Notes under the pieces: generated by a model | Seen by the model: the letters and a program-made list of their open reading frames with translations, nothing else | What the model was told of the DNA's origin: nothing | The model's database searches: none | Program-made: the position numbers and the translations under genes | Origin: Candidatus Poribacteria bacterium | GTDB lineage: Bacteria > Poribacteria > WGA-4E > PCPOR2b | NCBI GenBank assembly: GCA_028819845.1 | Contig: JAPPKS010000017.1 | Span: 199,516 to 242,189, forward strand | Reading direction: 5' to 3' | DNA: 42,674 nt | In this document: positions 11,079 to 31,372 of the stretch, piece after piece | Layout of the letters: each line of letters opens with the position of its first letter | How positions within the stretch are numbered: the first letter of the stretch is position 1

Positions 11079-11177
11079 TCATCGACAATAAATCCCCATC
11101 CCAATGCCGCAAAACCTACCCTCTGCTACATCTGCGATAAAATGCCTTCTCATTGTTACAAAATCAACACGTTTGCA
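11079..11177 (+). repeat. Upstream block, copy A (paralogous to 17020-17120)
   Basis: This non-coding block aligns by eye with 17020-17120. Both contain CCCCA-CCC-ATGCC-CAAAA, then TACCCTC-GCTAC-TCTG, and later CGTTTG-ATG-CTTTTT. The core of about 50 bases is roughly three-quarters identical. The overlapping 86-codon frame from 10929 has no ribosome binding site and no recognisable sequence, so I treat the region as non-coding. Confidence 0.6.
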
Positions 11178-11335
11178 TGGCTTTTTTAAGACGTCTTGCA
11201 CGAAAAATCATTCGAATCTTTGCTGATTTGTCACCGCCGACTGCGATGATGACCCGGTAATCCGACTGTTGCCCATCGCTTCCATTTATGTAGATCGTTT
11301 TTCAGTCAATCCGCGAACAAGCAAAAACTCTCCTC

Positions 11336-11365
11336 TTGATATGTGTTTCAATGTTATCGTATAAT
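11336..11365 (+). promoter_or_regulatory. Predicted sigma70-type promoter of the NurA-HerA-DpdA operon
   Basis: TTGATA (11336-11341), an 18-bp spacer and TATAAT (11360-11365) precede the nuclease gene by about 160 nt. A related TTGATA-17-TAAAAT lies in the same relative place in the second copy of the upstream block, before the restriction-modification gene. Confidence 0.6.
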
Positions 11366-11438
11366 GACCTAGGTTGATGCATGTTGTTACCGGTAGTGGA
11401 TTCGAGCTGATTGCCGTTTCGATCGAGACACGTATACT

Positions 11439-11528
11439 ATGAATTTACTTGAGATGATTGGAATTAGCCGTTTGAAGCGAGTTCGGAAAACGGAAATTGG
11501 ATTTCTTGATTGTCGAAGGGAAGAGTAG
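11439..11528 (+). CDS. Candidate 29-residue leader peptide abutting the nurA start
   Basis: An open frame of 29 codons begins with ATG at 11439 (MNLLEMIGISRLKRVRK...) and ends in TAG at 11526-11528, immediately before the ATG of the NurA-like gene. The peptide is basic in its middle and resembles nothing I know. Its own ribosome binding site is weak. The exact stop/start abutment could give translational coupling, but a chance open frame in the leader is equally possible. Confidence 0.3.
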   Translation: MNLLEMIGISRLKRVRKTEIGFLDCRREE

Positions 11529-13157
11529 ATGAATGACCAACTACATTTTCAATTCTATAAAGATGCAGCATTCAGAAATGCGGCGGAGCGCGTATTAGAA
11601 AATATCCTTACACAGTTTGAAGAGTTGTCAGAGGGTGAGCTCGAGAAACGCCTAGACACAAATGTAGAATTCCTTGTGAATGACTATATGCGGAATATCA
11701 CCAACACCAAGGTCAAAAGAAATATCGAGTCATTTAACTACACTATTGGCAGAGGTACCTTCGACGCCACATTGCTTTCAAAGGTTTGCACCAAAATGAA
11801 AGGCAAATGGGTGATTTCTGTCGACGAATCCATTATCGACAAAGAGAGCTTTGTAGGAGATGTGGCATACAGACACAGTTGTGCGTTTGGCTATAAAGTT
11901 CCTCAATCCCCCCAAGAATCTGAGGAAAGAATACTTGCTGTTTCTTCAATTTTGAGGCTGGAGGGCGAGGAAGATTTTGAAAAGAAGATGGACTTTTTAC
12001 CTTATCTGTTAAATCTTTACGTCGCATTTTATACTGCAAAAATACTTCAAAATTCTGGCGAGCCGATACTTGCCGTCATCTTACACGGCCCCTTGATACG
12101 GCAAATCGGACCTTTTCTGAACCTTTTATTTAAGCAGGATATTATAAAGAAAGTTGTTACCGCCGATACCTCCCCGCCAATCGACACTAGCCAAGAAATA
12201 AAGGACATTGCTAAGGGTAAACTCTTAGATTCCATAATAGTCGATCCAAACTACCAGGAGAGTTTGAGCCAATTCGTGGACGTGTCCCTTAACGCTGATA
12301 TCAGCGAAGCGGTGGAAAAGAGAATACAAGAAGGAGAAGTTCCAGGAATATGTTTCTATTTCTGTCTGCTCAGAAAATTATCAGATTTAGCCAATGAAAT
12401 GGATTTCTATCTCATAGGCTGTGTGGAAAATGCCCGTTCTACTGAATATTCAAAGCTCTACGTTCAATACCAAATCAATGAATTTGGGCAACATCACGTG
12501 CACGAAACCGTTCTTCGAAGATTGTTCAACGCCCATGACGTGAGTTACAATAGATTGACACTCCGAGAAGGTTTCAGAGAACTCATTGAAAAATCTGGGT
12601 GGGATGATGAAATGATACAATCTTTTTCATTGAAATTTGATGACGAAAGGTCTATTGAGTCCGAATTTACATTGCCTATACCAATTCGAAGGTACTTTCC
12701 TGGCGCGAGAAATAACAGAATTTTCAATTTCAGGTTCGGGTCGTCGTTAATGTTCGCAGACCCAGCACGAGAAGCATTAATCAGCCAATTGATAGAGAAT
12801 CTGTTTTCATTCGATGGCTATAGAATGTTGATGAGTTTTGTTAGAACTAGCGATCTCAGAGCGCCGATTCGAGTAGAATTCTTAGAGCAAGGTAATGAGG
12901 ATGATTGGAAGGAGCTCTTAGCAACTACATATATTGCGAGTCTTCCTTATACTAGCTACGGACTCCCGGTATTTTTGTATTACGCGGACAAAATCGCGCG
13001 GATGCCAAAAGAAATCATCTCAACAGTTACGGAGTCTTTTCTGTTTGAACAAGCAACGAGAGCTTTAAATCAGCTTGAATTAAGTGAAATTAACTTGAAA
13101 GATGTTCTTCTAGCTGTCACGCAGAAGTTTCGTAGAGACTTTTACGATCGAAATTAA
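11529..13157 (+). CDS. nurA: NurA-like nuclease partner of HerA
   Basis: The 542-residue protein shows a NurA-type layout. A long N-terminal helical part comes first. A WVISVDES strand follows, with Asp99 at the first metal-ligand position. Next come an ILAVILHGPLI segment (where NurA proteins usually read LDGPL or similar), a later DFYLIGCVENARS strand, and a C-terminal YGLPVFLYYADKIARM where the family typically has P...AHxxAxI. NurA is an end-resecting nuclease that works inside a complex with the HerA hexamer. The identity rests on these motifs and on the directly adjacent HerA-like gene (15-bp gap). Two expected ligand positions differ (His for Asp, Asp for His), so catalysis is not assured. 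The AT-rich composition contrasts with the flanking metabolic genes. Its ribosome binding site is AAGGGA, about 10 nt upstream. Confidence 0.72.
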   Translation: MNDQLHFQFYKDAAFRNAAERVLENILTQFEELSEGELEKRLDTNVEFLVNDYMRNITNTKVKRNIESFNYTIGRGTFDATLLSKVCTKMKGKWVISVDESIIDKESFVGDVAYRHSCAFGYKVPQSPQESEERILAVSSILRLEGEEDFEKKMDFLPYLLNLYVAFYTAKILQNSGEPILAVILHGPLIRQIGPFLNLLFKQDIIKKVVTADTSPPIDTSQEIKDIAKGKLLDSIIVDPNYQESLSQFVDVSLNADISEAVEKRIQEGEVPGICFYFCLLRKLSDLANEMDFYLIGCVENARSTEYSKLYVQYQINEFGQHHVHETVLRRLFNAHDVSYNRLTLREGFRELIEKSGWDDEMIQSFSLKFDDERSIESEFTLPIPIRRYFPGARNNRIFNFRFGSSLMFADPAREALISQLIENLFSFDGYRMLMSFVRTSDLRAPIRVEFLEQGNEDDWKELLATTYIASLPYTSYGLPVFLYYADKIARMPKEIISTVTESFLFEQATRALNQLELSEINLKDVLLAVTQKFRRDFYDRN

Positions 13158-13172
13158 CAAGGGAGGACAGTA

Positions 13173-15089
13173 ATGGCTTTAGGGGTTATTTTTGGAGAAA
13201 CCTCAACAAGGGAATTTGCCTTTTTGTTCGGAGATTCGCAGGAATTGGAACAAAGTAAATTAAAGTTTGCTTATGTTCAGGTCAATCTGGACGATGCTAA
13301 TATTGCTGTCGCACGTGTAATTGATGTGAATACGGAGAATCCGCTTTTGGGAAGAGACACCGCAAAATTTTACTCAGAAGGCGACACGACCGGAATTAGG
13401 TTTCCAGATCTTATGTCACGGCGATTCACATTGTACCAAGCAAAATGTGAAGTCATTGGTCAATATAATGGCCTAACGGCTACAATTGAACCATTGACAC
13501 AGCCGATAAAGCCCGGGGTGGAGGTCAAACCTCTAACGGAAGACATCCTTAACCAGCTTTTCTCCGCTGACGAACAGTGGCATTTACGGCTTGGATATGT
13601 TGAAACACCGGGAAGACAATCGCAGGCACAAGTTTCTTTGAATGCCGACTCAATTATTACGATGCACGCGTGCGTCTTCGGCATGACGGGCATGGGGAAA
13701 ACAACCACAACAGCTGTGCTTCTTGAGGAACTGATGTTTCGGGGAGCGAAGACCATTGTATTTGATCCGCACTCTGATTACACCAATATTAATCGAATAA
13801 ATCATCGTCTATATTCTCAATTTTTCAAGGAAAAAGTCGAAACTGACGAGAATTTACGACGCAAAATCGAGGAATACAGGGAATTACTAAAAAATGTCGA
13901 ACCTGCAACGGTTGATCCTTGGAAAAATATTGATCCATCGTTCAATAATCTTACCTCTGAGGAAATCAACGAGGAACTGACGTATGAGAATGTCTTTTAT
14001 CGTTTATTAAATGTTTGTGTGATTAGAGATCCCCGGTTAATGATCGACTCTTCCCGAAACCCTCAAGAGCTGGGTTTTCAAATTGATGACGTGATTACCA
14101 GTATCATGCACCTCAACCTGCAAACCGATTTGCCTGAAACTCTGGCCCGCCGAAAATTGACAATCAAACTTAACGTCTTTCCGACTCTTAGAATGTATCC
14201 AGAGAAAGGTGTATATTTCACGCTGAGATTAATCGAGGCGATTGCGGGCGAAGCGTTTTCTCCAGCACAACAAGGTTTTTTGTTTAGGTGGTTGTCGGGA
14301 TTGACAGATCTCACTCTGTCAAATCTTGCCCTTCTCAATTTCCTTAGAACCCGTGTTAATGCTCTGAACGATGAAAACCCTTCAAAGGTGCCATTAACGC
14401 GGATAATTGCCAGAGCTATTCGTACCATACATTCTTTGGTACAGCGAAACTGTAGTCCATTAAACTTAGGTGATTTTGTTGAAGCTTTTTGCAAGCATAA
14501 CAGAGACCTATCGAATGTGTCAACGGCCGTATTCAACCTGTCAGATTTGGAGAACAATCATGTAAGAAGGGCTTTAGTTTACGCGGTTATGGAATTTGCC
14601 TTTGACGAATACAAATCACGGCGATTTGTAATGGGTGAAAATGCTCATCCGATTCTATTTGCTATTGAGGAAGCCCGGACTTTAATCCCGCGTCAAGAGG
14701 AAAGTAATTCTAGCGGCGAAATGCACCCTGCCACGAGGGCGGCTCGGCTTGCTGCAAGGCAGATTGCGACTGAAGGGCGTAAAATGGGACTCGGAATGCT
14801 AGTTATATCGCAAAGACCAGCAAGCGTTGATCCATTAACCGTTTCTCAAGCCAACACGCTTATTTTGCATAGAGCCATTAACCCCGAGGATCAGAGCTAC
14901 ATCAGAACTGTTGGGGAAGGACTCTCCGCAGAGGACTTGGAAACGCTAAAAACAGTTAAGGAAGGTGTTGCCATTGTTTCAGGCGACGCTTTAAAAACCA
15001 GAATGTCCACCCTGGTCAAGATACGAAACAGATACAGCGAACCCGGGACCGAAAAACCACGCCCTATCAGGGCATTGTGGACAGACTGA
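13173..15089 (+). CDS. herA: HerA/DUF87-type hexameric DNA-translocase ATPase
   Basis: The 638-residue protein carries an N-terminal HAS-barrel-like region, then a Walker A loop GMTGMGKTTT (170-179, Lys176) followed by TIVFDPHSDYTN. The Walker B strand is PILFAIEEA near 493-501. A conserved VISQRPASVDPL segment lies near 545, and LILHRAINPEDQSYI follows, as in HerA/FtsK-like translocases. HerA pumps DNA and drives the associated NurA nuclease. The central insertion (about 200-470) is long. It lies 15 bp after the nuclease gene, and its TGA overlaps the ATG of the DpdA-like gene in a TGATG, so the three are very probably co-translated. A GGAGG ribosome binding site precedes the start. Confidence 0.88.
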   Translation: MALGVIFGETSTREFAFLFGDSQELEQSKLKFAYVQVNLDDANIAVARVIDVNTENPLLGRDTAKFYSEGDTTGIRFPDLMSRRFTLYQAKCEVIGQYNGLTATIEPLTQPIKPGVEVKPLTEDILNQLFSADEQWHLRLGYVETPGRQSQAQVSLNADSIITMHACVFGMTGMGKTTTTAVLLEELMFRGAKTIVFDPHSDYTNINRINHRLYSQFFKEKVETDENLRRKIEEYRELLKNVEPATVDPWKNIDPSFNNLTSEEINEELTYENVFYRLLNVCVIRDPRLMIDSSRNPQELGFQIDDVITSIMHLNLQTDLPETLARRKLTIKLNVFPTLRMYPEKGVYFTLRLIEAIAGEAFSPAQQGFLFRWLSGLTDLTLSNLALLNFLRTRVNALNDENPSKVPLTRIIARAIRTIHSLVQRNCSPLNLGDFVEAFCKHNRDLSNVSTAVFNLSDLENNHVRRALVYAVMEFAFDEYKSRRFVMGENAHPILFAIEEARTLIPRQEESNSSGEMHPATRAARLAARQIATEGRKMGLGMLVISQRPASVDPLTVSQANTLILHRAINPEDQSYIRTVGEGLSAEDLETLKTVKEGVAIVSGDALKTRMSTLVKIRNRYSEPGTEKPRPIRALWTD

Positions 15090-16327
15090 TGCAATACTTC
15101 ATCCCTGATTGGGAAGATCGAATCGACCCCAACTTTAATTTTGATAGTGATTTCAAATGGATCCGAAATTCTGACAGCTATACAGGTAGAGTTTATGCCC
15201 ATGAAATCTTTAAAAAACCACCTTACGATGGGATTCTGATTAGCCTTGGTCTCTTAAACAAATTTCGACCTTCAAACAATGACGCTCAACCATCTATACG
15301 AGGATTCACAGACATTAAACAATACTTGCGAATCAATTCCAATAACCCCTTGAAGGTTATGGGAGATTGCGGCGCTTTCAGTTATGTGAATCAAGATATC
15401 GTCCCGTTTTCAGTAACACAAGTAGCGGATCTATATGATTCACTGAACTTTGATTTAGGAATTTCCTTAGACCATTTAGTGGTTAAGAGTATCGTGAATG
15501 AAAACGGAAAGAAGATTGATTTGTCGGAATCTCAGCAAGAGACGAGAAGACAATTAAGTCTCGAAAACGCCAAGGCATTTTTGAATTATTGTCGGGCAAA
15601 GAGATATTCATTCGTTCCTATCGGTGCAGCTCAAGGATTATCTACGAGAACCTACATAGACTCCGTTGATAAGCTAATTGAGATGAATTACAATTATATT
15701 GCCCTAGGCGGCTTAATCCGTTACACCACAGCACAGGTTGACGAAATTGTAACAGCAATCATGGAGGATGTGGTTTCGCGAAAACACCCGCCGATTAAAG
15801 TCCATCTTCTTGGGGTTCTAAGACCACAATTGTTGCGAAAGTTTCGACGTTTTGGCATTACAAGTTTTGACAGCGCGTCATATTTGCGGAAAGCATGGTT
15901 GCGTTCATCCATGAATTATTTTGGACCTGACGAGAAATGGTATTCGGCAATTCGAGTGCCCTATTCGTGGAATTCGAACATACGTGCTAGCGCGAAGGAA
16001 CATGGAATTTCCCTTGACAAACTTCAGCGGTTGGAAAGAGATGCCATGACCGCGTTAAAGGGATTCGCCAAATCTAACGAGGACTTAGTCTCCGCATTAG
16101 ATGCAGTCTTAGAGTACGATACGCTTCTATTTAGAGCCTCGGAGAAAACAGATCTCAAGGAAAGATATAAACAAACTTTGCAGAGCCGGATATGGGAACG
16201 GTGCTCTTGTGAAATTTGCACAGATGCGGGAATTGACGTATTGATTTTTCGTGGCGCAAATCGAAATAAGCGACGTGGTTTTCATAATGTAAAAATCTTT
16301 CATAATCTTATATTAAATCAAAATTGA
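15089..16327 (+). CDS. dpdA: DpdA-like DNA 7-deazaguanine transglycosylase (TGT superfamily)
   Basis: The 412-residue protein belongs to the tRNA-guanine transglycosylase superfamily and looks closest to DpdA, which exchanges guanine for a 7-deazaguanine base in DNA. The N-terminus MQYFIPDWEDRIDP is DpdA-like. Catalytic-type residues are in place: GDCGAF (Asp93, the TGT general acid/base position), ISLDH (Asp128), ALGGL (206-210), and ITSFDSAS (Asp261, the nucleophile position), followed by RKAW. The zinc site is intact: C372-x-C374-x2-C377 and His399 in RRGFHN. The start is the ATG overlapping the herA stop; the GTG at 15077 would add four residues. No preQ0 biosynthesis gene (folE, queD, queE, queC) is in the window, so the base donor must come from elsewhere, or the chemistry differs. 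Confidence 0.83.
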   Translation: MQYFIPDWEDRIDPNFNFDSDFKWIRNSDSYTGRVYAHEIFKKPPYDGILISLGLLNKFRPSNNDAQPSIRGFTDIKQYLRINSNNPLKVMGDCGAFSYVNQDIVPFSVTQVADLYDSLNFDLGISLDHLVVKSIVNENGKKIDLSESQQETRRQLSLENAKAFLNYCRAKRYSFVPIGAAQGLSTRTYIDSVDKLIEMNYNYIALGGLIRYTTAQVDEIVTAIMEDVVSRKHPPIKVHLLGVLRPQLLRKFRRFGITSFDSASYLRKAWLRSSMNYFGPDEKWYSAIRVPYSWNSNIRASAKEHGISLDKLQRLERDAMTALKGFAKSNEDLVSALDAVLEYDTLLFRASEKTDLKERYKQTLQSRIWERCSCEICTDAGIDVLIFRGANRNKRRGFHNVKIFHNLILNQN

Positions 16328-16339
16328 CTACCTAGAACG

Positions 16340-16813
16340 ATGAGCGACAAATTGTGGGACCGACTTAGCGATAATCAAAACAGCTTCATTATCATCTCAT
16401 GCGCAAAACAGAAAATTTGGGACAGAACTCTTAATGCCGGTCCCACTCTTGCTAAAGATGCTTACGTAAGTGCTTATTTTCGGCTATCTCGTGCGTTCGC
16501 CGAAAAATACGGAACAGGTTGGGCAATCCTCTCTGCAAAGTACGGAATCATCTCTCCTGATTTTATCATTCATCAAGATTACGATGTGTCATTCAAAACC
16601 AATCCATTTTCACCCATCGAATCAAAGTTCAGTCGGCAACTTGTTGATATGAGAATCGAAACGTACGATTCGGCAATCTTCCTCGGCGGGCAATCTTATT
16701 ATAAAAAATTGCAAAAGGCTTTCATGGATTTTAATCTTCCCCTCCAAAGTCCGCTAGCTCACCTTTTCATTGGACAACGAATGAGATTATTGAATGACGC
16801 ACTGGGCAAATAA
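16340..16813 (+). CDS. DUF6884 / YaaA-like protein
   Basis: The 157-residue protein has an IIISCAKQK strand, a helix with YFRLSRAFAEKYG, then ILSAKYGIISPD, a YDVSFK segment, and IFLGGQSYYKKL. These match the DUF6884 pattern (SCxKxK, SAKYGxxxP, YD, GGxxY), a small alpha/beta fold related to the YaaA family. Related domains occur with transglycosylases that handle 7-deazaguanine bases, which fits the location 12 bp after the DpdA-like gene. A role as an accessory to base modification or base recognition in DNA is inference. No strong ribosome binding site is seen, so coupling to the upstream frame is likely. Confidence 0.75.
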   Translation: MSDKLWDRLSDNQNSFIIISCAKQKIWDRTLNAGPTLAKDAYVSAYFRLSRAFAEKYGTGWAILSAKYGIISPDFIIHQDYDVSFKTNPFSPIESKFSRQLVDMRIETYDSAIFLGGQSYYKKLQKAFMDFNLPLQSPLAHLFIGQRMRLLNDALGK

Positions 16814-17019: not shown

Positions 17020-17120
17020 CATCATTCCAAAATAATTCCCCAGCCCGATGCCACAAAAAGTACCCTCCGCTACGTCTGGGATGTAATACACCCTCCATGT
17101 CACAGTATCATTTCGTTTGT
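17020..17120 (+). repeat. Upstream block, copy B (paralogous to 11079-11177)
   Basis: This non-coding block is alignable with the block upstream of the NurA-HerA operon, sharing CCCCA-CCC-ATGCC-CAAAA and TACCCTC-GCTAC-TCTG words. Both are followed by a TTGATA-type promoter, though copy A has about 80 extra bases in between. The two defence-like modules therefore seem to share an upstream module by duplication. Confidence 0.6.
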
Positions 17121-17194
17121 ATGCCCTTTTTATGGCGACTTTCGCCAACCGCGCGCGTCGTTGATGCGGGAGTCTTCAAAGGCATATTCTCCCC

Positions 17195-17332: not shown

Positions 17333-20116
17333 ATGCGCCTGTCGTGGAATGAAATTCGTGTCCGTGCCGCTGCTTTCGCTCAAGATTGGGCAGATGAGGG
17401 CTACGAAAAAGGGCAAACCCAACTATTTTACCGCGACTTTTTCGAGATTTTTGGAATGCCGGTGCGCCGGGTTGCCGCGTTTGAAGAACCTGTTCAACTG
17501 CTTGGTGATAAGCGCGGCTTTATTGACCTGTTTTGGAAGGGCATGCTGCTCGTCGAACAGAAAAGTCTGGGACGCGACTTAACACAAGCCAGAGACCAAG
17601 CGTTTTCGTATTTTCCCGGTCTCACGGACGCTGACCTGCCGCGATATATCCTATTGAGCGATTTTCAGACGTTTGATTTGTGCGATCTCGACGAAGATGA
17701 TCGTGTTGCCTTTACCCTCGCCGACTTACCGCAACATGTCGAAAAGTTCGGCTTTATCTTGGGTGTGCAGAAGCGATCCTTCAGGGATCAGGATCCGGTC
17801 AACATCGAAGCTTCCGAGCGTGTTGGTCAACTACACGACGCACTAGCCGAATCCGGTTACACGGGGCATAATCTAGAACAATTCTTGGTTCGCATCGTCT
17901 TCTGCTTCTTTGCCGACGATACCGGGATTTTTGAGCCGCGTGACATTTTTCTCAATCTGTTGGAAAACCGAACGCAGGAAGATGGTTCAGACCTCGGCGG
18001 TTGGTTAGCGCAACTATTTCAAGTGCTCAACATGCCTATAGAGCATCGATCGACAATCCTAGACGAAGACCTTACCCGCTTTCCCTACGTCAACGGCGAC
18101 CTGTTCCGTGAACAACTGCTCATTCCGTCATTCAATTCCGATATGCGTCACCGGCTTATTGACGCTTGCCATTTCAACTGGTCGGAAATCTCCCCAGCAA
18201 TCTTCGGATCGCTCTTCCAATCGGTAATGGACAAAGATGAACGCCGCGCCCAAGGCGCGCACTACACCACTGAAAAGAACATCCTCAAGGTGATTGAACC
18301 GCTGTTCCTCGACGATTTGCGTGCCGAATTCCAACGCCTCAAAGCCCGAAGGGACAACCGCCGCCTTCCTGAACTGATTGCCTTTCAGCACAGACTCGGT
18401 CGGTTGCGAATATTTGACCCAGCGTGTGGTTGCGGCAACTTCCTCATCATCGCCTACCGTGAACTTCGGATGTTGGAAATAGAGGTGTTAAAAGAGATTA
18501 GTCCGCACGGCCAACTTGACATACTTGCGCAATCGCTTTCGGTGGTTGATGTAGACGGATTCTACGGGATTGAGTTGGGGGAGTTCCCGGTGCGAATCGC
18601 TGAGGTTGCCATGTGGATGATGGACCATATTATGAACAATCGTCTAAGCTTGGAATTTGGTCAGATTTATGCACGCATCCCGTTGGAAAAGTCTCCGCAT
18701 ATCAAACACGGCGACGCGCTGGAAACGGATTGGACGACGCTGCTGCCGTCAGAAGAATGCTCCTATGTACTCGGCAATCCGCCGTTTGCGGGTGCGAAAT
18801 TCCAGTCGCCGCATCAACGCGAACAGGTACGTAGCACCGCCGCGCTAGGCAAAAGCGGCGGCACCCTCGACTATGTGACCGCCTGGTTTATCAAAGCAGG
18901 TGAATACATCAAACAGAGCACAGCGCGAATCGGCTTTGTTGCAACCAATTCCATTACCCAAGGCGAACAGGTGGCGCAGCTTTGGCCGCTACTGTTTGAC
19001 CGTTGTAAGCTGGACATAACTTTCGCGCACCGTACCTTTGCATGGGGCTCGGACGCCCGCGGCATGGCGCATGTTCACGTGGTCATCCTTGGGCTAACAA
19101 AACAGGGCGCCGCATCGCGGGAGACGCGATTATTTTCCTACGACACTCCCAACAGTGAGCCGCACGAGAGTCAACATGTTGCCCTTTCGCCTTACCTGTT
19201 CGACGCAAGTGGATTGACTGATTCACGGATTGTAGTAAAAGAGGAATCTAAACAGATCAACGGTCTGCCAAAGTTGATTATTGGCTCCAAACCCATTGAT
19301 GGCGGAAACTACATTTTCAACGCGGACGAACGCACCGCTTTTTTGAGGGAAGAACCGAACGCCGAGCCGTATCTGCGCCCCTTCGTGGGAAGCCGCGAGT
19401 TTTTACAGGGCGGAGAACGGTGGATACTGTATTTGGCTGATATAGCACCCCAAGTGTTGAGGACGCTGCCGAAGGTCCGCGAGCGTATTGCGGCAGTCCG
19501 AGCCTATCGGTTGGCGAGTAAGAGCAAGCCCACGCAAGCACTCGCCGAGACACCGACCCTTTATCACGTCAACGTCGTTCCAGGAAAGCCGTTTTTGGTC
19601 ATACCGGAAACTAGCTCAGAACGACGATCGTATATCCCCATCGCGTGGCTGGAACCGCCGGCAATTCCAAGTAATTCGTTACGCATCATCGAAAACGCCA
19701 ACAAATCCCTATTCGCGTTGGTCACTTCTGCTATGCAAATGGCTTGGCTGAGGCACATTGGAGGACGCCTAGAGAGCCGCTATCGCTACTCCATCGGTCT
19801 CGTGTACAACACCTTCCCGGTACCCGAAGTCCCAGCGGAACGGCTACAGCGCCTTGAACCTTACGCAGATGCTGTCCTCGCAGCCCGCGCGGCCCATCTC
19901 GACGCCACCTTGGCTGACCTCTACGATCCGAATCTTATGCCTGTTGACCTTCGCAGAGCACACCGCGCCTTGGATAGCGCTGTCGATAAACTCTACCGGC
20001 GTTCTTCATTTTCCTCCGACCGCGAGCGGGTTGAACACCTGCTCGGTTTATATGAAAAAATGATGGTTCCGCTGGCAGCAAACGTCAAACCGAAGCGGAG
20101 GCGTCGTAGGCGATAG
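17333..20116 (+). CDS. MmeI-like Type IIL restriction-modification enzyme
   Basis: The 927-residue protein matches the single-chain MmeI family (MmeI is about 920 residues). An N-terminal PD-(D/E)xK nuclease site reads Asp65-x9-Glu75-x-Lys77, the MmeI spacing, inside FIDLF...LLVEQKS. A helical spacer follows. The gamma-class N6-adenine methyltransferase has motif I FDPACGCGNF (361-370) and motif IV NPPF (482-485). HYTTEKNIL precedes it as in the family. The C-terminal third (about 620-860) is the target-recognition region, and the tail is highly basic (KPKRRRRRR). Such enzymes methylate one strand and cut at a fixed distance with the same polypeptide. The gene is intact and stands alone. Its base composition is closer to the metabolic genes than to the preceding four-gene operon. 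Confidence 0.9.
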   Translation: MRLSWNEIRVRAAAFAQDWADEGYEKGQTQLFYRDFFEIFGMPVRRVAAFEEPVQLLGDKRGFIDLFWKGMLLVEQKSLGRDLTQARDQAFSYFPGLTDADLPRYILLSDFQTFDLCDLDEDDRVAFTLADLPQHVEKFGFILGVQKRSFRDQDPVNIEASERVGQLHDALAESGYTGHNLEQFLVRIVFCFFADDTGIFEPRDIFLNLLENRTQEDGSDLGGWLAQLFQVLNMPIEHRSTILDEDLTRFPYVNGDLFREQLLIPSFNSDMRHRLIDACHFNWSEISPAIFGSLFQSVMDKDERRAQGAHYTTEKNILKVIEPLFLDDLRAEFQRLKARRDNRRLPELIAFQHRLGRLRIFDPACGCGNFLIIAYRELRMLEIEVLKEISPHGQLDILAQSLSVVDVDGFYGIELGEFPVRIAEVAMWMMDHIMNNRLSLEFGQIYARIPLEKSPHIKHGDALETDWTTLLPSEECSYVLGNPPFAGAKFQSPHQREQVRSTAALGKSGGTLDYVTAWFIKAGEYIKQSTARIGFVATNSITQGEQVAQLWPLLFDRCKLDITFAHRTFAWGSDARGMAHVHVVILGLTKQGAASRETRLFSYDTPNSEPHESQHVALSPYLFDASGLTDSRIVVKEESKQINGLPKLIIGSKPIDGGNYIFNADERTAFLREEPNAEPYLRPFVGSREFLQGGERWILYLADIAPQVLRTLPKVRERIAAVRAYRLASKSKPTQALAETPTLYHVNVVPGKPFLVIPETSSERRSYIPIAWLEPPAIPSNSLRIIENANKSLFALVTSAMQMAWLRHIGGRLESRYRYSIGLVYNTFPVPEVPAERLQRLEPYADAVLAARAAHLDATLADLYDPNLMPVDLRRAHRALDSAVDKLYRRSSFSSDRERVEHLLGLYEKMMVPLAANVKPKRRRRRR

Positions 20117-28999: not shown

Positions 29000-31372
29000 T
29001 TGGACAACCGCCGTCGGTTGGTTTCGCCAGAAAGAATAGAAACCCTAAACACCATTCAACAACGTGTGTTGTGGCTTGCAACGCTTATCATTCATCATGC
29101 GAATGAGGTACGCACGAATCCTGATGGGATGAAGGTCGGCGGCCATCAGGCATCATCGGCATCGGTCGTTTCAATCATGACCGCGCTCTATTTTCACTTC
29201 TTGAAATCGGGCGACCGGGTCTCTGTCAAACCGCATGCATCGCCTGTCTTTCACGCTATCCAATACCTTTTGGGTCAATTGCCAAAGGAGTACCTGTCTC
29301 AATTCAGATCGTACGGCGGTTTGCAAGCGTACCCAAGCCGAACGAAAGATCCGGACATCGTTGATTTTTCGACGGGTTCGGTTGGACTTGGGGCAGTTGC
29401 ACCTGCGTTTGGTGCCTTAGCCCATCACTATGCCATGTCCCACTTCGGGCAGGCGAATTCGCGGCGTTTTGTTGGACTCATAGGCGATGCCGAGCTGGAC
29501 GAAGGCAACGTGTGGGAGGCAATCCTTGAGCAATCACTGGCAGGGTTGGGTAACCTGTTGTGGATTGTCGATCTCAACCGTCAAAGTCTTGACCGGGTTG
29601 TACCCGGTATTAGAGCCGGTCAGCTTCAACGCCTCTTTGAAGAGAGCGGCTGGCAGGTACTTGAAACCAAGTACGGTCGTACGCTGCAGAACCTGTTCGA
29701 ACAGCCCGGCGGGGACGCATTACGCCAACGCATTGATGAAATGAGCAATGAAGAATACCAGGCGGTCATTCGTTTGCCAGGCGATCAAATCCGTCGCCAT
29801 CTCCTTCATGGTCATGCGGAAAAATACCCGGAACTGGCATCGGGGATTCAAAATCTACCGGATAACACCTTACCGACTGTCCTGAGCAACCTCGGCGGTC
29901 ACGACATGGAAGAGTTGCTGAGTGTGTTCTCACAAGTAGACGAAGAGCCCGATCAACCGTCAATTATTTTCGCTTACACCATCAAAGGTTGGGGATTGCC
30001 GATCGCCGGTCACCCGCTCAATCATTCCATGCTGCTGAATGAAAAGCAAATTGACGAACTGCGGCAAGTATTGGACGTTCCCCCTGACGACGATTGGGCG
30101 CGGTTTGATTCTAATTCTTCGCCCGGTCAACTCTGCGACGAAACCGCTTCTGAGCTTTATCCCGCTTATACCGCACCGCCTGTAGCGCTCTCTCCCAATG
30201 AAATTCCGGAAAAGCTCTCTATTCCAGCCAAAGGCGTTTTGAGTACCCAACAAGCGTTTGGACGGCTGCTCCTCCAGCTCACGCGCGTGCCAAACTTGTC
30301 TAATCGGATCATCACCGCGTCGCCCGATGTGACGTCGTCTACGGGTATGTCAAGCTGGGTTAACAAAATGGGTGTGTTTGCACTAGAGGAATTGCCGGAC
30401 TACGAGACCGAAGCCAATGAACTCCGAAAATGGAAATACAGCCCGCAGGGGCAGCATATTGAATTGGGAATCTCTGAAATGAACTTCTTCATGATGCTAG
30501 GCATGTTCGGGCTGTCGGCCGAGCTTTCTGGACAGCACCTGATTCCCATTGGCACGGTTTACGACCCGTTTATTTGTCGCGGGCTCGACGCGCTGATTTA
30601 TGCACAGTATTCAGGCGCAAAGTTCATTTTTGCCGGCACACCGTCGGGAATAACGTTGTCCCCGGAAGGCGGAGCCCACCAGTCCACCGTTACCCCATCA
30701 CTGGGCGCAGAGTTGCCCGGGCTGAATGCGTACGAACCGTGCTTCGCCAAGGAGCTAGAGTGGATTTTGCTTGATGCACTTCGTCAATGCTGCGACCGGT
30801 CACACGGACGCTCAACCTATTTGCGCTTATCTACCAAACCCATTGACAATCAGCTTTTTGCATCAGCCATGGCGCGGTTGGGAGAGGAAGAATTGCGGCG
30901 GCAGGTACTCGCCGGCGGTTACAGGCTTGTCGATTGGCGAACGGCGGACCCGGTACGCCCCAAAGAGCGCTTAATTCACATTGCAACAACAGGCACCATG
31001 ATTCCGGAGGTGGCAGCCTCCGTGAACGCGCTGCATCGGAAGGGAATCGCCGTAAACGTGTTAAACCTGACGAGCGCCCGCCGTCTGTTTGAGGCTTGGC
31101 AAACCATGCAATGGGAAGATACACACGGCCCTTTTGATTGGCTTATTCCACAAAGTGAACGGCATGCGCCCATTATCACCGTTCATGACGGCGCATCTCA
31201 TGCCCTCGCATGGTTAGGCAGTGTGTACGGATCGCTGGTCGTACCGCTCGGCGTGGACGAGTTTGGACAATCTGGCGCGCGCACCGATCTCTATAAACAT
31301 TTTGGGATTGACCCCGACGGTATCGTTGAAGCCACGCTGATAGCGCTAAATCGTTGCGGGTTGTTTGTCTGA
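29000..31372 (+). CDS. AceE-like (homodimeric E1 / transketolase-type) ThDP enzyme
   Basis: The 790-residue protein resembles the homodimeric pyruvate dehydrogenase E1 (AceE). It has GGHQASSASVVSIMTALYFHF, the ThDP motif GDAELDEGN ending in WIVDLNRQ, a GHPLNHS histidine region, a central pyrimidine-domain segment with GISEMNFF, and EGGAHQST near 585. It is about 100 residues shorter than AceE. The start is taken as TTG 29000 because AGGAGG lies 6 nt upstream; the longer frame from 28919 lacks a ribosome binding site. No E2 or E3 gene is adjacent. The enzyme may therefore decarboxylate or transfer two-carbon units from a catabolic intermediate rather than feed a standard dehydrogenase complex; that is inference. 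Confidence 0.85.
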   Translation: MDNRRRLVSPERIETLNTIQQRVLWLATLIIHHANEVRTNPDGMKVGGHQASSASVVSIMTALYFHFLKSGDRVSVKPHASPVFHAIQYLLGQLPKEYLSQFRSYGGLQAYPSRTKDPDIVDFSTGSVGLGAVAPAFGALAHHYAMSHFGQANSRRFVGLIGDAELDEGNVWEAILEQSLAGLGNLLWIVDLNRQSLDRVVPGIRAGQLQRLFEESGWQVLETKYGRTLQNLFEQPGGDALRQRIDEMSNEEYQAVIRLPGDQIRRHLLHGHAEKYPELASGIQNLPDNTLPTVLSNLGGHDMEELLSVFSQVDEEPDQPSIIFAYTIKGWGLPIAGHPLNHSMLLNEKQIDELRQVLDVPPDDDWARFDSNSSPGQLCDETASELYPAYTAPPVALSPNEIPEKLSIPAKGVLSTQQAFGRLLLQLTRVPNLSNRIITASPDVTSSTGMSSWVNKMGVFALEELPDYETEANELRKWKYSPQGQHIELGISEMNFFMMLGMFGLSAELSGQHLIPIGTVYDPFICRGLDALIYAQYSGAKFIFAGTPSGITLSPEGGAHQSTVTPSLGAELPGLNAYEPCFAKELEWILLDALRQCCDRSHGRSTYLRLSTKPIDNQLFASAMARLGEEELRRQVLAGGYRLVDWRTADPVRPKERLIHIATTGTMIPEVAASVNALHRKGIAVNVLNLTSARRLFEAWQTMQWEDTHGPFDWLIPQSERHAPIITVHDGASHALAWLGSVYGSLVVPLGVDEFGQSGARTDLYKHFGIDPDGIVEATLIALNRCGLFV

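What the first reader, a model, noticed from the sequence alone, without database searches (positions are those of the whole stretch)
11336..16813. NurA-HerA-DpdA-DUF6884 operon: a possible undescribed DNA-modification/defence system
Four genes sit in one strand with gaps of 15 bp, a TGATG overlap and 12 bp. They encode a NurA-like nuclease, a HerA-like translocase, a TGT-superfamily protein with DpdA hallmarks (Asp93, Asp261, C-x-C-x2-C...H zinc site) and a DUF6884-like protein. HerA-NurA pairs resect DNA. DpdA inserts 7-deazaguanine bases in DNA, normally beside dpdB and other dpd genes that are absent here. The combination suggests base exchange coupled to a DNA motor-nuclease, either marking self DNA and degrading unmarked DNA or recognising modified phage DNA. 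A hand count in nurA (12541-12600) gives 38% GC against 50% in a metabolic gene (29521-29580), consistent with transfer. I do not know this exact set as a characterised system.
Basis: partly seen in the sequence, partly recalled or inferred. Interest (0 to 1): 0.88.

Follow-up and report, generated by a model that had tools for sequence, protein, structure and literature searches.

The report
DNA-base-swapping enzyme with motor nuclease
A four-gene operon in a Poribacteria genome couples enzymes that probably replace guanine in DNA with a 7-deazaguanine base to a DNA-pumping motor and nuclease; the same set recurs in two other bacterial phyla and is probably an undescribed restriction-modification-like defence system.

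Summary
Window 11529-16813 holds a tight operon: nurA (borderline Pfam hit, firm through relatives), herA, dpdA (NCBIfam DpdA 397 bits, cut-off 200; its family profile hits solved DNA-guanine transglycosylase 7ui4 at E 2e-90, archaeal tRNA TGT only at 1e-7) and DUF6884.

The set is not a one-off. Fourteen loci keep nurA, herA, a TGT-fold enzyme and a DUF6884 or ArcS-type domain: nine in Poribacteria, five in Chloroflexota. A partly deleted copy lies in Bacteroidota. In six relatives DUF6884 is fused to DpdA.

The two halves exchange partners. The window keeps a NurA-HerA 59-68% identical to its relatives but has a different DpdA (38-42%). One DpdA 81% identical to a HerA-linked copy sits instead with a UvrD helicase and PD-(D/E)XK nuclease. 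At one chromosomal site five genomes keep only dpdA 3' scraps.

DUF6884 shares the CxxxK motif and fold of YaaA and archaeosine synthase, so it may act on the preQ0 nitrile. Most likely reading: DpdA+DUF6884 mark self DNA; HerA-NurA destroys unmarked DNA. No chemistry or phage assay exists. I found no published description of this set. New variant of a known kind.

The parts
11529..13157 (+). nurA: NurA-type nuclease, 542 aa; conserved columns across the wider family include D99 (VDES), H186-G-P-L, E300, R448, E450, D487-K488
   Evidence: Pfam NurA 21.6 bits (cut-off 21); orthologues 24.1-36.9 bits, the distant ones matching nearly the whole NurA profile; hhalign to distant NurA prob 90.7; first four PDB fold hits are NurA, but the model has low confidence; conservation
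13173..15089 (+). herA: HerA/FtsK-type hexameric DNA translocase, 638 aa; Walker A GMTGMGKTT, Walker B ILFAIEE
   Evidence: Pfam DUF87 1.2e-21; PADLOC HerA 5.7e-39; family profile hits solved HerA structures; motifs read
15089..16327 (+). dpdA: DNA-guanine transglycosylase, 412 aa; Asp93, Asp261, C-x-C-x2-C...H zinc site; ATG in the TGATG overlap with the herA stop (GTG at 15077 is an alternative start)
   Evidence: NF041059 397.5 bits; PADLOC DpdA 5.7e-115; family profile to PDB 7ui4 E 2.4e-90; alignment
16340..16813 (+). DUF6884 protein, 157 aa: YaaA/DpdC/ArcS-like; invariant C21-x3-K25, S65-A66-x2-G69, Y42, Y81, Y120; predicted to act on the nitrile of the inserted preQ0
   Evidence: PF21818 1.6e-19; alignment; hhalign to ArcS-type domain prob 88.5, E 2.8e-6; model pLDDT 86.6 with top PDB fold hits AF0587 (2q07) and YaaA (5caj), prob 0.99, E 0.004-0.01
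11336..11365 (+). promoter-like match TTGATA-N18-TATAAT (11/12) upstream of nurA; weak evidence
   Evidence: number of promoter-like sites not above shuffles
11087..11197 (+). left copy of a 111-bp imperfect direct repeat flanking the operon
   Evidence: blastn 73.9% over 111 bp, E 5e-15, to 17031-17141
17031..17141 (+). right copy of the 111-bp imperfect direct repeat

Best explanation
A compact restriction-modification-like system. (1) Inferred from family membership: DpdA swaps selected guanines in double-stranded DNA for preQ0, which the host can make (QueC shown; the rest of the pathway not searched). (2) Inferred from motif and fold: the DUF6884 protein uses its CxxxK active site on the nitrile of the inserted preQ0, giving an amide (ADG-like) or related group, the role of DpdC or ArcS. 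(3) Inferred from the HerA-NurA literature: the HerA hexamer threads duplex DNA into the NurA dimer, which degrades both strands. (4) Inferred from gene association: the mark protects resident DNA, and incoming unmarked DNA is captured and destroyed. Shown here: the genes, their families, intact catalytic motifs, recurrence of the set, fusion of DUF6884 to DpdA, independent exchange of the modification pair and the nuclease pair, and repeated loss at one chromosomal site.
For: DpdA is of the DNA-acting kind and the genome has its own canonical tRNA Tgt (534.6 bits) and QueC. Relatives of this DpdA lie beside QueC, QueD, QueE, FolE2 and, in some loci, DpdD/E/F/J or a DpdH-like protein. DUF6884 is fused to the DpdA N-terminus in relatives, and one DUF6884 next to DpdA matches DpdC at 8.5e-11 (L066). 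NurA-HerA-TGT plus DUF6884/ArcS recurs: window; L030-L035; L092, L093; L101-L105; partly deleted in Bacteroidota L117. Catalytic residues persist in the distant TGTs. Exchange of parts: window DpdA 38-42% against 58-86% among Poribacteria relatives, while NurA is 59-65% and HerA 62-68%; L029 DpdA is 81% identical to L030 DpdA but sits with UvrD-PDDEXK. The same NurA-HerA unit also occurs as C5-MTase-NurA-HerA-Vsr. Low GC; five dpdA deletion scars at one site. T. kodakarensis HerA-NurA cleaves both strands of dsDNA and is proposed to be antiviral (PMC12977600). dpd islands inhibit unmodified DNA (cited in PMC11888242).
Against: No nucleoside, phage or transformation data exist for any member. 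dpdB, which the S. Montevideo Dpd system uses for insertion, is absent from the operon. No sequence-specificity subunit is evident, so how DpdA chooses guanines and how HerA-NurA senses the mark is unknown. The short TGTs of L092/L093/L102-L105 lie between DpdA and arcTGT by profile, so a DNA substrate is less sure for them. In Myxococcota, Cyanobacteriota and Pseudomonadota samples this NurA with a TGT was not found. NurA itself is only just over the Pfam cut-off.
Confidence: 0.6

Rival explanations
1. Type IV-like system: HerA-NurA attacks DNA that already carries foreign 7-deazaguanine bases (as some phages do); DpdA and DUF6884 detect or process such bases rather than mark self DNA.
For: Phages carry dPreQ0, dADG and dG+ (PMC6884629). 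DUF6884 protein YfjM was found among proteins that bind DNA lesions (PMC11701544). No specificity subunit for self-marking is visible.
Against: DpdA keeps both catalytic Asp residues and the zinc site in every copy, which a reader would not need. Related DpdA-DUF6884 pairs are linked to preQ0 synthesis genes and dpdD-J. The same NurA-HerA also pairs with a C5 methyltransferase plus Vsr.
Confidence: 0.13
2. DNA repair module: HerA-NurA processes ends, the transglycosylase exchanges damaged guanine and DUF6884 (YaaA-like) acts in oxidative damage tolerance.
For: Classical role of HerA-NurA in end processing; YaaA is tied to oxidative stress (PMC11701544).
Against: Sporadic presence (full-length NurA in 8 of 85 genomes of the phylum), scars of loss at one site, aberrant GC, exchange of the nuclease pair for UvrD-PDDEXK. 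The T. kodakarensis study argues HerA-NurA does not do end resection.
Confidence: 0.12
3. Independent modules merely neighbouring in a defence island: a HerA-NurA nuclease system and a DpdA-DUF6884 DNA modification that do not work together.
For: Each half occurs without the other: UvrD-PDDEXK with DpdA (L029, L036), MTase-Vsr with NurA-HerA (L106, L107, L112).
Against: Close packing with a stop/start overlap, and the same combination built from at least three divergent TGT lineages in two phyla, are hard to get from chance neighbours.
Confidence: 0.1
4. The transglycosylase modifies tRNA, for example depleting or marking tRNA in infected cells, with HerA-NurA as a separate effector.
For: TGT superfamily; some short TGTs in distant loci score a little above DpdA with arcTGT models.
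Against: Window DpdA scores 397 bits with DpdA against 24.5 with arcTGT (cut-off 350) and its family matches a DNA-guanine transglycosylase structure at 2.4e-90; canonical Tgt is present elsewhere.
Confidence: 0.05

Closest known systems
Dpd (7-deazapurine in DNA) genomic islands, dpdA-dpdK
   Same: DpdA of the same NCBIfam equivalog; a DpdC-like DUF6884/YaaA protein; expected to mark DNA with preQ0-derived bases; relatives of this DpdA sit with dpdD/E/F/J and queC/D/E/folE2
   Different: no dpdB and none of dpdD-K beside it; HerA-NurA takes the place of the restriction genes; DUF6884 is a short single-domain protein, or a fusion with DpdA in relatives
BREX-Related Capture (BRC) systems (PMC12839542)
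   Same: HerA/FtsK translocase with a TGT in one locus, proposed as capture plus self-marking
   Different: BRC is defined by PglZ, DUF6079, STAND NTPase and DUF4007 with optional GNAT and TGT; none of these is in this operon, the paper reports no DpdC homologue there, and 'NurA' does not occur in its text
HerA-NurA complexes (archaea, Deinococcus) and HerA-based defence (HerA-Sir2, HerA-DUF4297)
   Same: HerA hexamer delivering DNA to a partner; NurA fold
   Different: no DNA-base modification genes are described with those; this NurA family is divergent (542 aa, just over the Pfam cut-off)
Archaeosine pathway (arcTGT + ArcS) and phage DpdA/ArcS (phage nt-1)
   Same: TGT plus an enzyme with a CxxxK active-site motif acting on preQ0; L101 even has a TGT-ArcS(DUF5591) fusion after NurA-HerA
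   Different: archaeal targets are tRNA; phage versions protect phage DNA and have no motor-nuclease partner

Membership tests
Dpd system | DpdA DNA-guanine transglycosylase | tested here: met
   NF041059 397.5 bits, cut-off 200; PADLOC DpdA 5.7e-115; family profile to PDB 7ui4 2.4e-90
Dpd system | DpdB (DndB/ParB-like ATPase) next to dpdA | tested here: not met
   no such ORF in the operon; the only PF14072 protein in the genome lies on another contig close to a PAPS-reductase gene, so it is probably Dnd-type
Dpd system | DpdC, acting on inserted preQ0 | tested here: inconclusive
   PF21818 70.9 bits, DpdC profiles only E 0.036-0.049; a related DUF6884 in L066 hits DpdC 8.5e-11
Dpd system | dpdD-K restriction genes in the same island | tested here: not met
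   PADLOC scan of the operon and the next gene shows none; genes further off were not scanned with PADLOC
Dpd system | dPreQ0 or dADG in DNA | not testable with these tools
   needs LC-MS/MS of carrier DNA
NurA-HerA pair | NurA domain | tested here: met
   21.6 bits, cut-off 21; relatives 24.1 to 36.9 bits; hhalign prob 90.7
NurA-HerA pair | HerA ATPase with Walker A and B motifs | tested here: met
   DUF87 1.2e-21; GMTGMGKTT and ILFAIEE
NurA-HerA pair | ATP-dependent dsDNA degradation | not testable with these tools
   biochemistry needed
tRNA transglycosylase (Tgt/arcTGT) | score over curated cut-off | tested here: not met
   TIGR00432 24.5 bits against 350; TIGR00449 24.2 against 47.6
BREX-Related Capture system | PglZ, DUF6079, DUF4007 and STAND NTPase with HerA | tested here: not met
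   Pfam scan of the operon and adjacent ORFs, 8.1-23.6 kb, finds none
DUF6884 (PF21818) | CxxxK and LSAxxG motifs (PMC11701544) | tested here: met
   SCAKQK and LSAKYG in the window protein

The most novel reading that the evidence does not exclude
HerA-NurA is a general 'restriction cassette' that has been joined repeatedly to different DNA-marking chemistries (DpdA+DUF6884, short TGT+DUF6884, TGT-ArcS fusion, C5-MTase+Vsr). The DpdA form is then a four-gene 7-deazaguanine restriction-modification system without DpdB, in which HerA may also supply the ATPase needed for base insertion, and the TGT-ArcS form would put archaeosine-type bases into bacterial DNA.
Probability: 0.3. Interest if true: 0.9.

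Novelty: new variant of a known kind. Interest (0 to 1): 0.78.

Why it matters
Known Dpd islands need up to eleven genes and the restriction half has no worked-out mechanism. A four-gene version with a well-studied motor-nuclease as the apparent restriction part would make the question of how 7-deazaguanine-marked DNA is told from unmarked DNA testable with a few purified proteins. It also gives a role to the uncharacterised DUF6884 family by linking it, through motif, fold and operon context, to chemistry on the preQ0 nitrile, and it supports an antiviral rather than repair role for bacterial HerA-NurA pairs.

Tried and rejected
Single-sequence NurA scan of GTDB contigs and tblastn in phages and plasmids: nothing; NurA and DpdA scans of viral contigs: no relatives, so no sign that it is phage-borne. 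NurA-family searches in Myxococcota (312) and Cyanobacteriota (319) genomes: no hit; Pseudomonadota (329): one hit, with an MTase and Vsr rather than a TGT. AlphaFold of NurA from 7 sequences has low confidence (pLDDT 50.6); its NurA fold hits are only suggestive. The MmeI-type gene 17333-20116 was considered as part of the system and rejected: 53% GC against 42%, 519-nt gap, no counterpart in the relatives' loci. The genome's DndB-family protein was considered as a remote DpdB and set aside because of the nearby PAPS-reductase gene. The idea that L103 lacked the transglycosylase was wrong: it was hidden by the ORF picker and is intact. The S. Montevideo DpdA structure paper and the 2024 deazaguanine review are not in the library, so their details are cited second-hand.
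Full report
What is there. The four ORFs are present at the given coordinates, all on the + strand, with gaps of 15 nt, a TGATG stop/start overlap and 12 nt. The operon is 41.9% GC in a 52.4% GC neighbourhood. The genome is a Poribacteria-type MAG: relatives of the same phylum appear in GenBank as Candidatus Poribacteria. A 111-bp imperfect direct repeat (74%) lies on both sides of the operon.

Gene by gene. Gene 1 is NurA-like: Pfam NurA 21.6 bits against a cut-off of 21. The link is firmer through its relatives: distant family members match the NurA profile over nearly its full length at 33.7-36.9 bits, they align to the window family by hhalign (prob 90.7, E 1.2e-6), and D99, H186-G-P-L, E300, R448, E450 and D487-K488 are invariant in ten sequences. 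Gene 2 is HerA with intact Walker motifs. Gene 3 is DpdA: NCBIfam equivalog at 397 bits, against 24 bits for tRNA TGT models; the family profile matches 'DNA-guanine transglycosylase' 7ui4 at 2.4e-90 and archaeal tRNA TGT only at 1e-7. Both catalytic Asp and the zinc ligands are kept. The genome has a separate canonical tRNA Tgt, and QueC is found in all 85 genomes of the phylum, so preQ0 should be available; the other steps of its synthesis were not searched. Gene 4 is DUF6884.

What DUF6884 does. Pfam curators relate DUF6884 to YaaA and note CxxxK and LSAxxG motifs (PMC11701544); a genome-mining paper lists DUF6884 as the domain of dpdC (PMC11888242). Here the window protein keeps both motifs, its model (pLDDT 86.6) has AF0587 and YaaA as first fold hits, AF0587 is also the PDB match of an ArcS-type domain, and a profile comparison of DUF6884 with that ArcS-type domain aligns the CxxxK and SxxYG motifs (prob 88.5, E 2.8e-6). 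ArcS modifies the nitrile of preQ0 (PMC11298593) and DpdC is called an amidohydrolase (PMC6884629). I infer that DUF6884 acts on the nitrile of the preQ0 that DpdA inserts. This is an inference from motif, fold and context.

Recurrence. In Poribacteria, six genomes carry NurA-HerA-[DUF6884-DpdA fusion] (L030-L035), and one contig breaks after NurA-HerA (L083). Two genomes carry a very divergent DUF6884-NurA-HerA-TGT version (L092, L093), and one has DUF6884-NurA-HerA up to the contig end (L091). In 400 Chloroflexota genomes the NurA family was found in seven: four have DUF6884-NurA-HerA-TGT (L102-L105) and one NurA-HerA-TGT/ArcS fusion (L101); the other two have a C5-methyltransferase and a Vsr endonuclease in place of the TGT and DUF6884 (L106, L107). 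A Pseudomonadota genome has the same MTase-NurA-HerA-Vsr set (L112). A Bacteroidota genome holds DUF6884-truncated NurA-TGT with HerA gone (L117). Counting the window, fourteen loci hold complete sets.

Exchange of parts. NurA and HerA of the window are as similar to the other Poribacteria copies (59-65% and 62-68%) as the more distant of those are to each other, but its DpdA is only 38-42% identical to theirs, which are 58-86% identical among themselves and 53-59% to a deltaproteobacterial DpdA; a tree puts the window DpdA on its own long branch beside that group. So the window has a different modification pair on the same motor-nuclease. Conversely, L029 DpdA is 81% identical to L030 DpdA but is preceded by a UvrD helicase and PD-(D/E)XK nuclease instead of NurA-HerA, and both lie next to the same tricorn-like gene. 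L034 and L035 have both nuclease pairs. The DUF6884-DpdA/UvrD/PD-(D/E)XK combination also occurs in Deltaproteobacteria and Chloroflexota (L045, L046), and other relatives of this DpdA sit with DpdD, DpdE, DpdF, DpdJ or a DpdH-like protein and with QueC/D/E and FolE2.

Gain and loss. In one genus-level group the system lies between an acetate-kinase-like and a tricorn-like gene. Five genomes have lost it from this site (in L042 the tricorn-like gene is not seen in the stretch fetched) and keep 26-126 codons of the dpdA 3' end (L040-L044). Patchy presence and scars fit a defence function better than housekeeping repair.

Mechanism. The T. kodakarensis HerA-NurA complex cleaves both strands of duplex DNA in an ATP-dependent way, and its authors propose an antiviral role (PMC12977600). 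Together with the modification pair, the simplest reading is marking of self and destruction of unmarked DNA. Shown: genes, families, motifs, recurrence, fusion, exchange and loss. Inferred: DNA as the substrate of this DpdA, nitrile chemistry by DUF6884, discrimination by the mark, and defence.

Known or new. The parts are known. The nearest described systems are Dpd islands (different restriction genes, plus dpdB) and BREX-Related Capture systems (HerA plus optional TGT, but with PglZ and other BREX-like parts and with no DpdC homologue reported). Full-text searches for HerA/NurA with transglycosylase, deazaguanine or DpdA found no description of this set; the library lacks many subscription papers and holds no bioRxiv collection, so this is not proof of novelty. 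I rate it a new variant of a known kind.

Noticed in passing
L106:6669-12495; L107:723-6461; L112:519-6239: C5-methyltransferase - NurA - HerA - Vsr operons in two Chloroflexota genomes and one Pseudomonadota genome: an apparent restriction-modification system using HerA-NurA as the nuclease.
   Followed up: partly
L029:7267-12391, L036:5746-11446, L045:9464-14863, L046:3050-8197: A second recurrent combination: UvrD-type helicase, PD-(D/E)XK nuclease and a DUF6884-DpdA fusion, without NurA-HerA.
   Followed up: partly
L101:13031-14977; L039:8609-10489: TGT fused to an ArcS-type DUF5591 domain in bacteria: one copy follows NurA-HerA, the other stands alone elsewhere in the window's own genome.
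   Followed up: partly
L114:4653-9828 (G000 contig 8): PAPS-reductase-like gene and a DndB-family gene close together in the window's genome, possibly a phosphorothioate-type locus.
   Followed up: no
window:17333-20116: MmeI-family Type IIG restriction-methylase (PADLOC 1154 bits) just downstream, with host-like GC, so apparently a separate acquisition.
   Followed up: partly
window:22043-22268: Three 75-nt tandem repeats, each with a GGCGGGGCATCTTGCCCCGC hairpin.
   Followed up: no
window:20507-20808: Repeated direct and inverted TCACAAAATGTGACAT elements in an AT-rich intergenic stretch.
   Followed up: no
window:16962-17005 and window:20999-21042: 82% identical 44-bp stretches on the two sides of the MmeI gene; the second begins a PhyH-like ORF, so the first may be a fragment of a similar gene.
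   Followed up: no
L054:3-9597: DruE1-type Druantia helicase next to a DpdH-like ATPase, a short TGT and a DpdA in Chloroflexota.
   Followed up: no
L070:9209-21152: Noviherbaspirillum: DUF6884-DpdA fusion, an unknown 405-aa protein, HerA, a 607-aa protein, a DEAD helicase, UvrD and PD-(D/E)XK in one row; the 405-aa protein could be a diverged NurA equivalent but matched no Pfam family.
   Followed up: partly
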